Program-made: the position numbers and the translations under genes
IMG/VR virus record: IMGVR_UViG_3300021170_000008
Span: 1-64,000 of that record
Source: a virus
DNA length: 64,000 nt
Direction: 5' to 3' (one strand)
Shown here: positions 13,114-52,170 of the stretch, piece after piece
Layout of the letters: the number at the start of each line of letters is the position of its first letter
How positions within the stretch are numbered: the first letter of the stretch is position 1
Notes under the pieces: model-generated
The model's database searches: none
Seen by the model: the letters and a program-made list of their open reading frames with translations, nothing else
What the model was told of the DNA's origin: nothing

Positions 13114-13199
13114 GTGTTCCATGATGAAACGGGGCCTTTGAAGCCCCGTATACCGGACATGGTCACCCGGTACTGACGATTCAGACCAGATAGGAACAT

Positions 13200-29479: not shown

Positions 29480-30009
29480 GCACACCGATCCTAACGCGAG
29501 CCAAGGGAAAGACAGGACGTGTATGGATAGCCAAGGAAGCCCTGCAAACCCTCTACTATGAACGCAACTTATCCACCGTAGAGATCGCGTCTCTTCTTGG
29601 TGTTTCCAAGAAAACCGTCCGCTTGCGCATGGAAGAATACGAGATGAAGGCTCGCTCTCTACGCGAAGCGTTCTCCGTGTCTACCAAGCATTACGGGAAA
29701 AATCCACGCATTGGCCAAGACTCCACGGCGTGGAAGGGCGGAAGAAAATATCACGCCTGCGGATATATTCAGGTTTTATCTAAAGGACATCCAGAAGCCA
29801 ACGCCGATGGCTATGTTTTTGAGCATCGATTAGTCGCCGAGGGGATGATCGGACGCAGGCTTCTACCTGACGAAGAAGTACACCATATCAACATGGAGCG
29901 AGACGACAACAGGCCGGAGAATATCCTCGTTATGAAAATTTCGGAGCACCGTTCTATGCACATCAAAGCACGCTGGGACGCTGGGCTCATGCCTGGAGCA
30001 AAATTATGA
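29476..30009 (+). CDS. HNH endonuclease with N-terminal helix-turn-helix (177 aa)
   Basis: Residues 18-55 (LQTLYYERNLSTVEIASLLG then VSKKTVRLRMEEYEM) form an HTH; residues about 80-165 form an HNH domain (YVFEHRLVAEGMIGRRL, DEEVHHINMERDDNRPENIL). Such proteins are often free-standing homing endonucleases. It sits immediately before recT, in frame overlap on both sides. Confidence 0.75.
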   Translation: MSTPILTRAKGKTGRVWIAKEALQTLYYERNLSTVEIASLLGVSKKTVRLRMEEYEMKARSLREAFSVSTKHYGKNPRIGQDSTAWKGGRKYHACGYIQVLSKGHPEANADGYVFEHRLVAEGMIGRRLLPDEEVHHINMERDDNRPENILVMKISEHRSMHIKARWDAGLMPGAKL

Positions 30010-31454
30010 CAACTGAAGTAACTACCGGGGTTCATGCATTCACGCCAGAACAGGTGGCGTTAATTAAAAGCCAGATCACCCCTGAAGGCACTACCGACGA
30101 TGAACTGGCTATGTTTTTACTGTACTGCACACGTACCGGATTAGATCCATGGGCGCGTCAGATTTACCTGAGTGAGCGCCGGACTAAAAAGGGAGATCGC
30201 TGGATCACGACGCGCAAGCCGGAAACTACTATTGACGGCTTTAGGTTAATCGCTGATCGTACCACTAAATACGCCGGTCAGCTTGGACCCCAGTGGTGTG
30301 GCGAGGATGGTGCCTGGAAAGACGTTTGGACGCCACGGGAGCCGCCGATAGCTGCAAGGGTAGGCGTCCTGCGGCATGACTTCAAGGAGCCATTGTACGC
30401 CGTGGCTCTCTATGACGAGTACGTTCAGAAGAACAGCGAAGGCAGGCCAAATTCGATGTGGCTCAAGATGCCCGCTAATCAGTTGGCCAAATGCAGTGAA
30501 TCGCTCGCTCTGCGTCGTGCATTCCCCCGCGAATTAAGTGGTCTCTATACTCGCGAAGAAATGGCGCAAGATACACCGGACTCGCCTGCGCCAAGTACTG
30601 AGCAATACTTCGTGGAGGAAATCCCGGCTGATTCAGAACCGGTAGTCCAGGTCGTCGATCACATTAACGGGAATCCGACCGACAACACGCTATCCAATTT
30701 GAAGATCGTGCCTCAGTCAGCGAAACCGGAGCCGACCCTCAACGAGCAAGTAGACGCGCACCGGGCTCTGGCTGAGATCGAGGTTAAGCAGATTCGCGAG
30801 GATATCATCAAAACCACCGGCGGCGTGACCAAGCAGATGACCGACGAGTTCTTCTTGGGATGGTTTGGGGCTAAAGACAAGCGCAGTCTGCCTAGGATCG
30901 TTTCGTCTTATCTTGCTCCGCTACAGGCGCTCCAGAAGACTCTTGTAACCGTAGCTGGATCGCATCAGCAACTTTTAGAGAGCCCCCAAGCACTTGGGGC
31001 TAGCGTCAAAAAAGAGTACGACCAAGTTACCGCAGGCGGGACACGAAACCACGCAGCACAAACAACCGAGGCCGTATTTGAACGGACTGAAGTGCTCGAC
31101 GACAAAGACATCTTAGAAGATCCGCTGCTGACGAAGTTTAACTGGAAGAACATCAATACCGCGATCTTCGCCAAGGCCCTGATGGTTAAATGGGGCCACG
31201 ACATGGAGACGTTTGAAAAGCACCTGCGGCTGCTCAAGATTCTGGATCTGCCGGAGCCGGAGATCGTGGCGCTGTGCAAGATGTTATGGCACTCGACAGA
31301 CGCCTACACGATATGGAAGCGCGGCCTGGACAAGAAGATACCGCTGACGGTTTCGCTCATAGCGATAGAAAACGAACTTGGCGAGACTCTCGGAAACGGC
31401 TCCGACTCAGCCAAGGTCGCCAAAGCGATATCCGTAGTAGCTGGAGCGATGTAG
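30006..31454 (+). CDS. RecT/Bet-family single-strand annealing protein with an HNH-like segment (482 aa)
   Basis: Residues 10-190 match phage Bet/RecT annealing proteins (GLDPWARQIYLSERR, TIDGFRLIADRT, CSESLALRRAFPRELSGLYT). Residues about 215-235 read VVDHINGNPTDNTLSNLKIV, the core of an HNH nuclease motif (DHInGn..DN...NL), a segment not normal in RecT. The C-terminal part is helical. It should act with the PD-(D/E)XK nuclease at 32069. A dispersed palindrome lies at 30593-30610, just before the HNH segment. Confidence 0.75.
   Translation: MTTEVTTGVHAFTPEQVALIKSQITPEGTTDDELAMFLLYCTRTGLDPWARQIYLSERRTKKGDRWITTRKPETTIDGFRLIADRTTKYAGQLGPQWCGEDGAWKDVWTPREPPIAARVGVLRHDFKEPLYAVALYDEYVQKNSEGRPNSMWLKMPANQLAKCSESLALRRAFPRELSGLYTREEMAQDTPDSPAPSTEQYFVEEIPADSEPVVQVVDHINGNPTDNTLSNLKIVPQSAKPEPTLNEQVDAHRALAEIEVKQIREDIIKTTGGVTKQMTDEFFLGWFGAKDKRSLPRIVSSYLAPLQALQKTLVTVAGSHQQLLESPQALGASVKKEYDQVTAGGTRNHAAQTTEAVFERTEVLDDKDILEDPLLTKFNWKNINTAIFAKALMVKWGHDMETFEKHLRLLKILDLPEPEIVALCKMLWHSTDAYTIWKRGLDKKIPLTVSLIAIENELGETLGNGSDSAKVAKAISVVAGAM
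30593..30610. promoter_or_regulatory. Dispersed palindrome inside recT
   Basis: AAGTACTGAGCAATACTT: arms AAGTA and TACTT with one interior mismatch; intragenic. Confidence 0.45.
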
Positions 31455-49707: not shown

Positions 49708-49736
49708 TTGACACGAAGTACGGCAAGATGTATGCT
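49708..49736 (+). promoter_or_regulatory. Promoter of the Y-RNA/Ro locus
   Basis: TTGACA (49708-49713, in CGCTTGACACG context), 17-bp spacer, TATGCT (49731-49736). The predicted start, 49742-49743, is the first base of the outer stem of Y RNA 1. Confidence 0.75.
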
Positions 49737-49742
49737 GGTTAA

Positions 49743-49865
49743 GTTCGGGTCGGCAGGTTAGCCTTATCTGGTTACCTTGGTTCGACTCCAAGACCCACGC
49801 AAGTGGGTTCTAGTAGCTCTGTTAAGGGGTTGCTAGTCGATGGCTGGCCACCCACTTATCCGGAC
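49743..49865 (+). ncRNA. Y RNA 1 (YrlA-like, permuted tRNA module)
   Basis: Outer stem GTTCGGGT (49743-49750) with ATCCGGAC (49858-49865), 8 bp; internal loop CGGCA against ACCCACTT; inner stem GGTTAGCC (49756-49763) with GGCTGGCC (49842-49849), 8 bp; then TTATC. The head holds a T arm CTTGG-TTCGACT-CCAAG (49776-49792), an acceptor-like stem ACCCAC-GCAA-GTGGGT (49793-49808) closed by a GNRA tetraloop, and TAGCTC with a D-like arm (49816-49830). Order T, acceptor, D is the circular permutation known in YrlA RNAs. Confidence 0.75.
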
Positions 49866-49881
49866 ACCTTTTAAGTTCTCA

Positions 49882-50015
49882 GATTCGGGTCGATAGATTA
49901 GGGTTATCTTTTATCAAAAGAGAGGTCGCTGGTTCGAGTCCAGCCGTGTCTCGCGAGGGGCGCGTAGCTCAGTTGGTAGGGCGCTAAAACGCCCTGGTTA
50001 ACACTTATCCGAGTC
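49882..50015 (+). ncRNA. Y RNA 2 (YrlA-like, canonical permuted tRNA module)
   Basis: Outer stem ATTCGGGT (49883-49890) with ATCCGAGT (50007-50014); internal loop CGATA against AACACTT; inner stem GATTAGGG (49896-49903) with CCCTGGTT (49992-49999); TTATC follows. Head: AGGTC variable-loop-like (49923-49927), T arm GCTGG-TTCGAGT-CCAGC (49928-49944), acceptor CGTGTCTC-GCGA-GGGGCGCG (49945-49964, 8 bp, tetraloop), TA, D arm GCTC-AGTTGGTA-GGGC (49967-49982). Compensatory changes relative to Y RNA 1 support both stems. Confidence 0.8.
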
Positions 50016-50141
50016 GATACTGCGTAGTTTGACGGTGGTTGATGTGACTTGCCCGGAAACGGGCCGTGGAGCCACGGTTACCTTACTTGGGGCCACGGGT
50101 CTGTCGATCCATCTGCGTCCCGAAATAGGAGAAAAAATCAC

Positions 50142-51767
50142 ATGGCAAAGAACTATCTGGCTGGCGTTTTGAACCCGTTGTCAGTTCCACAGTCCGAGCC
50201 GCTTCCCGGCAAAGAGATGGTCGCCAATAACGCAGGCGGCTACGTGTTCTCTATCTCCACAATGAAGCAGGTAGAGCGCTTCCTGATCTTGGGATCTGAG
50301 GGCGGTTCGTATTACGTCACCGAGCGCAAAATGACGTTAGGCAACGTCAACGCCTTGAAGGCTGCGCTTGCCGCAGATGGACCTGCCGTTGTCCGGCTGA
50401 TCGTCGATATCAGCACTAAGGGACGTGCCCCCAAGAATGACTCCGCGCTGTTTGCTCTGGCATTGGCTGCGAGCCCGAAGTTTGCCGACGCTCGCACCAA
50501 CTCAATGGCGCTTGCCGCTCTGCCGCAGGTTGCACGTACTGGCACGCACTTGTTCCAGTTCGTAAACTTCGTCGAAGGCAACAAGCTCCGTGGTTGGGGC
50601 CGTGGTCTGCGTGCGGCTGTGGCTGACTGGTACCTGTCGAAGACGCCGGACAAGTTGGCGTATCAGGCTGTGAAGTACCAGAACCGCGAGCAGTGGTCGC
50701 ACCGCGATCTGCTTCGGCTGGTCCACGCGAATAATCCGGCGCTCCAGAATGTTTTCCACTGGATCGTGAAGGGTGAGATCGAAGGTCCGGTACCGGCGTT
50801 TATTGAGGCATTCGAAAAGGCCAAGGTCTCAACTGATCCGAAAGAGATCATCAGCCTGATCGAGAGCGCCAACCTGACTCGGGAAATGATCCCGACGCAA
50901 TTCCTGAACGATGTCGCTGTTTGGGACGCATTACTCCAGAAGATGCCGCTGACGGCTATGGTCCGTAACCTGGGTAAGATGACGCAGGTCGGTTTGATCA
51001 AGCCGTTGTCGGACGCATCTGCGCTTGTTAGCGGACGGCTCCGGAACCAGGAATGGCTGAACCGGGCGCGGGTCCACCCGATTGCTCTGCTGATGGCGGC
51101 TTCGACGTACGAGTCTGGCCGTGGTCTGCGTGGCAGTTTGACTTGGGAGGCCGTGAAGCCGGTTGTCGATGCGCTGGATGAAGCCTTCTATCTGGCCTTT
51201 GATAACATCGTTCCAACTGGCAAGCGGTTCTACCTTGGAATCGATGTCAGCGGATCGATGGGCATGGGAAGAGTGGCCGGTACGGCGCTTACCCCACGCG
51301 CAGGCGCGGCAGCGATGGCAATGGTGACGGCTCGCCGAGAGTCCAACTATTACATGGCAGGGTTCCAGGACAAGATGGTCCCGCTCGATATCGGGGCTCG
51401 TGACCGTCTGCCGGATGTTATCCGCAAGACCGATAATCTGCCGTTTGGAGCCACGGATTGCGCTCAGCCGATGATCGATGCGTTGAAGAAGAAGCTCGAA
51501 GCCGATGTCTTCATCGTGTACACCGACAACGAGACCTGGGCCGGTCCAAAGCACCCGACAGCAGCACTTCAGGAGTACCGGGAGAAGATGGGGATCAATT
51601 CGAAGTTGATCGTCTGTGGTTTGACGGCTACCGGCTTCTCTATCGCAGATCCGTCTGATCCTGGGATGCTTGATGTGGTTGGATTCGATACTTCTGTTCC
51701 TCAGGTAATCTCGTCGTTTGTCGGTGGAGGCGAGATGCCGGAGGAACAGGAAGTCGAAGCAGAGTAA
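50142..51767 (+). CDS. rsr: Ro60/Rsr-family TROVE-vWA RNA-binding protein (541 aa)
   Basis: Start ATG at 50142 has AGGAG 10 nt upstream; a longer frame from 50049 lies in structured RNA and is rejected. Residues about 20-340 form the helical TROVE ring that holds the 3' ends of misfolded RNA and Y RNA on its outer face; residues about 360-530 are a von Willebrand A domain with the MIDAS signature DVSGSMG (368-374), GATDC and VYTDNE, so metal-binding residues are intact. Known bacterial Ro acts in RNA degradation and stress with PNPase. The gene is flanked by five Y-type RNAs, so this is a complete phage Ro particle. Confidence 0.9.
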   Translation: MAKNYLAGVLNPLSVPQSEPLPGKEMVANNAGGYVFSISTMKQVERFLILGSEGGSYYVTERKMTLGNVNALKAALAADGPAVVRLIVDISTKGRAPKNDSALFALALAASPKFADARTNSMALAALPQVARTGTHLFQFVNFVEGNKLRGWGRGLRAAVADWYLSKTPDKLAYQAVKYQNREQWSHRDLLRLVHANNPALQNVFHWIVKGEIEGPVPAFIEAFEKAKVSTDPKEIISLIESANLTREMIPTQFLNDVAVWDALLQKMPLTAMVRNLGKMTQVGLIKPLSDASALVSGRLRNQEWLNRARVHPIALLMAASTYESGRGLRGSLTWEAVKPVVDALDEAFYLAFDNIVPTGKRFYLGIDVSGSMGMGRVAGTALTPRAGAAAMAMVTARRESNYYMAGFQDKMVPLDIGARDRLPDVIRKTDNLPFGATDCAQPMIDALKKKLEADVFIVYTDNETWAGPKHPTAALQEYREKMGINSKLIVCGLTATGFSIADPSDPGMLDVVGFDTSVPQVISSFVGGGEMPEEQEVEAE

Positions 51768-51990: not shown

Positions 51991-52000
51991 GTAATCTGGC

Positions 52001-52067
52001 TTCGGGCCGAAGTGGGATGGTTATCTTTCTGAAAAAAAATATGCCATCCCGCACATACTTGTCCGAG
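52001..52067 (+). ncRNA. Y RNA 5 (minimal, loop type)
   Basis: Outer stem TTCGGGC (52001-52007) with GTCCGAG (52061-52067); internal loop CGAA against ACATACTT; inner stem GTGGGATGG (52012-52020) with CCATCCCGC (52044-52052); loop of 23 nt starting TTATC and A-rich. The 5' strand GTGGGATGGTTATC resembles the corresponding stretch of metazoan Y RNAs. Confidence 0.7.
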
Positions 52068-52093
52068 CAAATCACTCCTGCTTCAGTTTCCGC

Positions 52094-52123
52094 TTGACAA
52101 TAAGTATCCATCAATGCTAAACT
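52094..52123 (+). promoter_or_regulatory. Promoter for the Ro-linked AAA+ ATPase
   Basis: TTGACA (52094-52099, in CGCTTGACA context), 18-bp spacer, TAAACT (52118-52123); start point about 52130, so the ATG at 52114 is excluded and 52171 is used. Confidence 0.65.
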
Positions 52124-52170
52124 TGAAGCTGTCCACAATTTCCAAGATAGAAGGTTGGTACCTATACCAC

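What the first reader, a model, noticed from the sequence alone, without database searches (positions are those of the whole stretch)
49923..49983. Circularly permuted tRNA-like module in Y RNA 2
In order: AGGTC (variable-loop-like), T arm with loop TTCGAGT, acceptor stem of 8 bp closed by GCGA, the dinucleotide TA (tRNA positions 8-9), and D arm with loop AGTTGGTA carrying the GG that contacts the T loop. All tRNA elbow elements are present, but the natural 5' and 3' ends are joined by a GNRA tetraloop and the RNA is open where the anticodon stem would be. Salmonella YrlA is known to be a tRNA mimic of this type, so the phage RNA probably exploits tRNA-modifying or tRNA-binding enzymes, or a host exoribonuclease.
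Basis: partly seen in the sequence, partly recalled or inferred. Interest (0 to 1): 0.88.

Follow-up and report, generated by a model that had tools for sequence, protein, structure and literature searches.

The report
Phage Y RNA hiding permuted tRNA
Next to its gene for the RNA-binding protein Ro60, this phage encodes a small RNA that contains a whole tRNA, anticodon arm included, cut open and rejoined at a different point; relatives carry the same RNA in normal tRNA order, so the shape rather than the position of the ends seems to be what evolution keeps.

Summary
A model built from 25 other Y RNAs (window left out) hits window 49880-50017 at 109 bits, E 1.7e-25.

The claim that the RNA is 'open where the anticodon stem would be' is wrong. 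The anticodon arm is present (49908-49922, 7-nt loop UUAUCAA), paired on to C27-U28 (49984-49985). The Ro60-binding stem is inserted between tRNA positions 28 and 29. Removing it and rejoining in tRNA order gives 74 nt that ARAGORN calls a tRNA.

Relatives show the arm is selected: among 72 distinct permuted Y RNAs a 3-bp stem goes with a 7-nt loop 31 times, and at most 4 times with any other loop size. About 40 distinct relatives carry the reciprocal isomer: normal tRNA order, Ro stem closed by a small loop, sometimes an encoded CCA. On a Ro60 tree the two topologies interchange at least five times.

tRNA mimicry by Y RNAs is published. The anticodon arm and the two isomers appear new, but the key papers could not be read here. 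Effector and function are untested.

The parts
49708..49736 (+). sigma-70-like promoter TTGACA-17-TATGCT just upstream of Y1
   Evidence: 10 of 12 consensus matches, 0.4 expected by chance
49740..49868 (+). Y RNA 1: Ro60-binding stem, T-arm-like hairpin, GCAA-capped acceptor-like hairpin, long third hairpin in place of a D arm; no anticodon arm seen
   Evidence: R1 22 bits, E 0.0012; folds better than all 200 shuffles, z -3.6
49880..50017 (+). Y RNA 2, whole RNA
   Evidence: R1 109.1 bits, E 1.7e-25, model built without the window
49882..49903 (+). Ro60-binding stem, 5' strand: lower helix 49882-49890, upper helix 49896-49903, followed by conserved UUAUC
   Evidence: pairs with 49992-50015; both helices covary in relatives
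49908..49922 (+). anticodon arm: 29-31 CTT, 7-nt loop TTATCAA (anticodon position AUC), 39-43 AAGAG
   Evidence: arm conserved in relatives with 7-nt loop, U33 and R37
49923..49927 (+). variable loop AGGTC (tRNA 44-48)
   Evidence: sequence, alignment
49928..49944 (+). T arm, loop TTCGAGT
49945..49964 (+). acceptor helix, 8 bp, its two strands joined by GCGA
49965..49982 (+). TA (tRNA 8-9) and D arm, loop AGTTGGTA
49983..49985 (+). tRNA 26-28 (G, CT) that close the anticodon stem with 42-43
   Evidence: 27:43 and 28:42 both pair in 47 of 72 permuted and 28 of 40 tRNA-order relatives, shuffle maxima 28 and 15
49992..50015 (+). Ro60-binding stem, 3' strand: upper 49992-49999, lower 50007-50015
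50142..51767 (+). Ro60 (Rsr) gene, 541 aa, TROVE and vWA_Ro60 domains
   Evidence: Pfam 8.8e-49 and 1.3e-66; Ro60 and Rsr structures 1yvp, 2nvo, 9nen matched at E 1e-120 to 1e-129
51997..52070 (+). further Y RNA without a tRNA module, downstream of the Ro60 gene
   Evidence: R1 30.3 bits, E 1e-5

Best explanation
Y RNA 2 is a noncoding RNA that binds the phage's own Ro60 ring through its conserved end stem and displays a complete, circularly permuted tRNA mimic at the other end. The mimic has acceptor, T, D and anticodon arms and a variable loop; the Ro60 stem is inserted between tRNA positions 28 and 29, and the acceptor ends are sealed by a GNRA loop, so it cannot be charged or extended like a tRNA. 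Most likely it works as other bacterial Y RNAs do: the stem docks on Ro60, and the tRNA-shaped module brings a tRNA-binding host or phage protein, such as the PNPase of the RYPER complex or a tRNA-modifying enzyme, to the Ro60 ring. Shown here by sequence comparison: gene context, the architecture, conservation of the anticodon arm, and the existence of a reciprocal tRNA-order isomer. Inferred: transcription, Ro60 binding, the bound partner, and any benefit to the phage.
For: Ro60 gene 125 bp downstream, with full-length matches to solved Ro60/Rsr proteins. Model R1 hit at E 1.7e-25. Covariation in 25 relatives: 94% of cells paired against 71% shuffled and 33-43% slid, 218 double changes against 72 (that set was chosen for an intact anticodon arm, so helices 3-4 are tested without that choice). 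Unselected anticodon-arm test: 7-nt loop 31 of 72, other sizes at most 4; U33 35/41, R37 37/41, A38 37/41, 26 different triplets. With the Ro insert removed and the order restored, ARAGORN calls a tRNA for the window RNA, 67/72 permuted and 39/40 tRNA-order relatives, against 15-40% when halves of different RNAs are joined. Reciprocal isomer: 79 cases against 3.1 (maximum 7) with swapped acceptor strands. Ro60 in the fetched DNA of 56 of 80 permuted and 39 of 49 tRNA-order loci. Published for YrlA: Rsr binding by the stem, PNPase binding by the tRNA-like domain, DusA and TruB act on it (PMC8394870).
Against: Nearest-neighbour folding prefers another fold for the D-arm side (P(D) 0.01). Only 31 of 72 permuted and 10 of 40 tRNA-order relatives show the strict 3-bp, 7-nt anticodon arm. 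No expression or binding data; PNPase or any other partner was not tested. No rtcB in the phage record.
Confidence: 0.72

Rival explanations
1. Decoy: the anticodon arm and elbow make the RNA a bait or competitive inhibitor for anticodon nucleases, a tRNA-cutting host defence; several Y RNAs per locus with different loops would widen the cover.
For: Published suggestion that YrlA, which is not cut, competitively inhibits an anticodon nuclease (PMC7790460). Loop architecture is kept while the triplet varies freely. The phage carries 27 tRNA genes of its own, a usual companion of tRNA-directed conflict.
Against: YrlA as published lacks an anticodon arm and fragments of it were not seen. Many relatives lack the strict arm. 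No nuclease identified.
Confidence: 0.2
2. Substrate or docking site for tRNA-modifying enzymes, with modification regulating the Ro60 RNP.
For: YrlA carries D and pseudouridine made by DusA and TruB (PMC8394870). All elbow elements those enzymes read are present here.
Against: Modification could be a by-product of the shape.
Confidence: 0.2
3. A permuted or intron-bearing tRNA gene that yields a working tRNA, the Ro stem being removed.
For: After removal ARAGORN calls a tRNA-Asp with anticodon AUC. Some tRNA-order relatives encode CCA: offsets 8 and 9 hold 6 and 4 of 40, other offsets at most 1.
Against: In the window the acceptor ends are joined by 4 nt, leaving no leader, trailer or CCA. 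A34 is unusual in bacterial tRNAs. The body does not match the isoacceptor of the loop: 7 of 41, shuffled 5.7. The insert is the Ro60-binding stem next to a Ro60 gene.
Confidence: 0.03
4. The stable fold is the GGGCG/CGCCC hairpin and no D arm forms.
For: Minimum free energy fold, P 0.98.
Against: Not conserved: relatives keep the GAGC-type D stem and the Ro-stem pairing of CCC. Folding also misses the covarying anticodon arm in the relatives. Tertiary contacts and Ro60 are not modelled.
Confidence: 0.1

Closest known systems
YrlA, bacterial Y RNA (Rfam RF02553; Salmonella structure 6CU1 as cited in PMC8394870)
   Same: Ro60-binding end stem, permuted T-acceptor-D order, elbow sequences, location beside Ro60
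   Different: Rfam YrlA joins the module to the stem by a plain 4-bp helix; here a split 5-bp anticodon stem with a 7-nt loop adds a full fourth arm. Score 33.5, below the cut-off of 69
Y RNAs of actinobacteriophages (Turret, Sparky, BearBQ, FuzzBuster, Forza)
   Same: Same permuted module; hits of 109-118 bits with R1 (L139, L141 and one L011 RNA are in the model), beside genes annotated as Ro-like; the RNAs are not annotated
   Different: Ro60 only 43-47% identical; different anticodon-loop triplets and acceptor sequences
Permuted tRNA genes of algae and archaea (own knowledge)
   Same: 3' half precedes 5' half
   Different: Those are processed to normal tRNAs; here the acceptor is sealed by a tetraloop and a Ro60 stem is attached
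tmRNA
   Same: A non-tRNA RNA that mimics a tRNA (review PMC8394870)
   Different: tmRNA keeps a chargeable acceptor end and lacks an anticodon arm (own knowledge); here the acceptor is closed and the anticodon arm kept

Membership tests
Bacterial and phage Y RNA (Ro60 partner) | Encoded beside a Ro60 gene | tested here: met
   TROVE and vWA_Ro60 gene at 50142-51767
Bacterial and phage Y RNA (Ro60 partner) | Conserved Ro60-binding stem from paired 5' and 3' ends | tested here: met
   Lower and upper helices pair and covary in relatives
Bacterial and phage Y RNA (Ro60 partner) | Physical binding to Ro60 | not testable with these tools
   needs an experiment
YrlA (RF02553) | Reaches Rfam gathering score of 69 | tested here: not met
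   33.5 bits, model positions 24-84 only
YrlA (RF02553) | T, acceptor and D arms in permuted order | tested here: met
YrlA (RF02553) | Module joined to the Ro stem by a plain helix, no anticodon arm | tested here: not met
   Rfam consensus against window 49908-49922 and 49984-49985
tRNA | Recognised as tRNA in its native order | tested here: not met
   ARAGORN none; Rfam tRNA 20.3, below 29, in a chance register
tRNA | Full cloverleaf after the Ro insert is taken out and order restored | tested here: met
   74 nt, ARAGORN calls tRNA-Asp(atc)
Permuted tRNA gene giving a working tRNA | Room for 5' and 3' maturation and CCA between the halves | tested here: not met
   only GCGA between the acceptor strands
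RYPER-type Y RNA | Tethers PNPase to Ro60 | not testable with these tools
   published for Deinococcus; not testable from sequence

The most novel reading that the evidence does not exclude
Y RNAs of this class are complete tRNAs carrying a Ro60-binding stem between positions 28 and 29. They exist as two circular isomers that have switched repeatedly. The anticodon arm is functional: it is presented by Ro60 to anticodon-reading proteins (anticodon nucleases, synthetases or modification enzymes), and the tRNA-order isomers with an encoded CCA can be charged or CCA-extended.
Probability: 0.2. Interest if true: 0.88.

Novelty: new variant of a known kind. Interest (0 to 1): 0.66.

Why it matters
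Published accounts held here describe tRNA-like Y RNAs as copies of the acceptor, T and D arms only. A conserved anticodon arm, and two naturally interchanging circular isomers of the same RNA, give an evolutionary experiment: whatever is kept in both isomers (overall shape, elbow, anticodon arm, Ro stem) is what the RNA needs, and free ends are not. This makes the open question of what the tRNA-like module binds directly testable, and points to anticodon-reading proteins as well as elbow binders. It also shows that phages carry a large, mostly unannotated stock of Ro60 RNPs.

Tried and rejected
A generic permuted T-arm plus D-arm pattern in viral contigs mostly returned tandem ordinary tRNA genes; only hairpin-joined cases were kept. 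The R1 hit at 94806-94884 of the phage record lies in a tRNA array and is a junction artefact. Rfam tRNA hit at 49881-49952 is a chance register. A few tRNA-order hits were ordinary tRNAs whose D loop mimics the Ro motif; they were removed by requiring the D arm to end before the Ro strand, though two or so (L395, L442) may remain. Descent of Y2 from one phage tRNA: tRNA-Gln(ctg) looked closest among the phage's own 27 but is not special against 1955 tRNAs, and loop and body isoacceptors do not agree. RtcB in the phage: none. Primary Y RNA papers (Chen 2014, Wang 2018, Sim 2018 and 2020) are not in the library, so novelty against them is unchecked.

Full report
What was checked. A descriptor for T arm, acceptor hairpin, TA and D arm finds one convincing hit in the window and 0.13 hits of any score per random 64 kb. 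Rfam aligns YrlA to exactly this module (33.5 bits, E 1.7e-5 for 601 nt), below the family's cut-off of 69. The gene 125 bp downstream is a full Ro60 protein with TROVE and Ro60-type vWA domains, matching solved Ro60 and Rsr chains at E 1e-120 to 1e-129. A good promoter lies just before Y RNA 1, and no terminator-like site was found between the Y RNAs and the gene.

The record is a virus contig of 106134 bases, with portal and terminase genes and 27 tRNA genes between 88.6 and 96.6 kb. Ro60 genes occur in 341 of 50,697 phage records, mostly actinobacteriophages. In five fetched GenBank phages the intergenic Y RNAs are not annotated.

Relatives and the anticodon arm. Scans of viral and genome contigs with the Ro-strand plus T-arm pattern (capped at about 120 rows each and biased to that motif, so counts are not prevalences) gave hundreds of Y RNAs. 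Between the conserved GGUUAUC of the Ro stem and the variable loop many have a hairpin that had not been searched for. In tRNA numbering it is 29-31 paired with 39-41 around a loop of exactly 7 nt, continued by 27:43 and 28:42 on the far side of the Ro stem. It was not part of the selection. Among 72 distinct permuted RNAs (under 80% identity; the window RNA is one of them) the 3-bp Watson-Crick stem goes with a 7-nt loop 31 times and with any other loop size from 3 to 11 at most 4 times; for 40 tRNA-order RNAs, 10 against at most 3. Whole-helix counts exceed all 2000 shuffles, and double changes exceed all shuffles. Position 33 is U in 35 of 41, 37 is a purine in 37, 38 is A in 37, and 34-36 hold 26 different triplets, none a stop anticodon. 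So the Ro60 stem sits between tRNA positions 28 and 29, and the module is a complete tRNA.

The window RNA fits this model: 49908-49922 forms the arm with loop UUAUCAA, C27-U28 are 49984-49985, and both Ro helices pair. A covariance model from 25 relatives, window excluded, gives 109.1 bits and E 1.7e-25; E-values of this short calibration are rough. Taking out the Ro insert and restoring tRNA order gives a 74-nt sequence that ARAGORN calls tRNA-Asp(atc); so are 67 of 72 permuted and 39 of 40 tRNA-order relatives, against 15-40% when halves of different RNAs are joined.

Two circular isomers. In about 40 distinct RNAs the order is acceptor, D arm, 26-28, Ro 3' strand, small loop (often GNRA), Ro 5' strand, anticodon hairpin, variable loop, T arm, acceptor. 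True cases number 79, against 3.1 on average (maximum 7) when acceptor strands are swapped between loci; permuted cases number 119 against 0.3 when the downstream 70 nt are shuffled. These tRNA-order RNAs occur in 17 viral loci and, among bacteria, in Nostoc and other cyanobacteria, Polyangium and Sorangium, Litorilinea and an Armatimonadetes genome, mostly beside Ro60. Some encode CCA exactly after the acceptor: offsets 8 and 9 hold 6 and 4 of 40, other offsets at most 1 (one of these, L442, may be an ordinary tRNA). On a Ro60 tree of 75 proteins the labels need 11 changes, at least 5 forced by strongly supported branches. The two forms have therefore interchanged repeatedly.

Counter-evidence. 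That hairpin depends on the window's GGGC in the D stem; relatives have GAGC. The same energy model finds the D stem at probability above 0.5 in 57% of relatives but the covarying anticodon arm in 6%, so it misses the multi-helix junction generally. Only probing can settle the window RNA itself.

Mechanism. Published for YrlA: the end stem holds Rsr, the tRNA-like part binds PNPase, DusA and TruB modify it, and it has been proposed as an inhibitor of an anticodon nuclease (PMC8394870, PMC7790460). TROVE proteins in jumbo phages have been linked to RNA repair with a tRNA-like partner (PMC7824862). The permuted isomer cannot be charged, because its acceptor is sealed by GCGA; a feature kept in both isomers is therefore unlikely to serve translation. 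The best reading is a Ro60 tether that presents a tRNA shape, anticodon arm included, to a tRNA-binding protein. Loop triplet and tRNA body do not agree with one isoacceptor (7 of 41, shuffled 5.7), which speaks against recent capture of whole tRNAs or decoding.

Novelty. tRNA mimicry by bacterial and phage Y RNAs is published (Chen 2014, cited in the papers above; from my own knowledge it covers phages too). The held texts describe only D, T and acceptor arms, and Rfam's YrlA has no anticodon arm. The anticodon arm and the reciprocal isomers are therefore new as far as could be checked; the primary papers were not available.

Noticed in passing
window 13122-13190: Type II hammerhead ribozyme above the Rfam cut-off (40.5 bits).
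   Followed up: no
window 51997-52070: Another Y RNA without a tRNA module between the Ro60 gene and an AAA ATPase gene; R1 30.3 bits, E 1e-5.
   Followed up: partly
window 50030-50084: Possible third Ro-type stem in reversed order (ACTTGCCC-GGAAAC-GGGCCG..GGTTACC) in the leader of the Ro60 gene; no tRNA module recognised, folding z only -1.4.
   Followed up: partly
window 49740-49868: Y RNA 1 has a T arm and a GCAA-capped acceptor hairpin but a long 11-bp hairpin where the D arm should be, and no anticodon arm.
   Followed up: partly
phage record G000:C1:88656-96542 (L499): 27 tRNA genes, covering most amino acids.
   Followed up: no
window 52114-53703: AAA ATPase downstream of Ro60 (phrog_10440); among the fetched Ro60 relatives L001-L016 only L006 has a clear homologue.
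   Followed up: partly
L499 18064-19941 (- strand): 625-aa ORF whose sequence reads like a Hint/intein segment with an HNH-type insert; judged by eye from the translation.
   Followed up: no
window 30006-31454: RecT-like annealing protein that also matches HNH endonuclease families around residues 202-241, perhaps a decayed HNH insertion.
   Followed up: no
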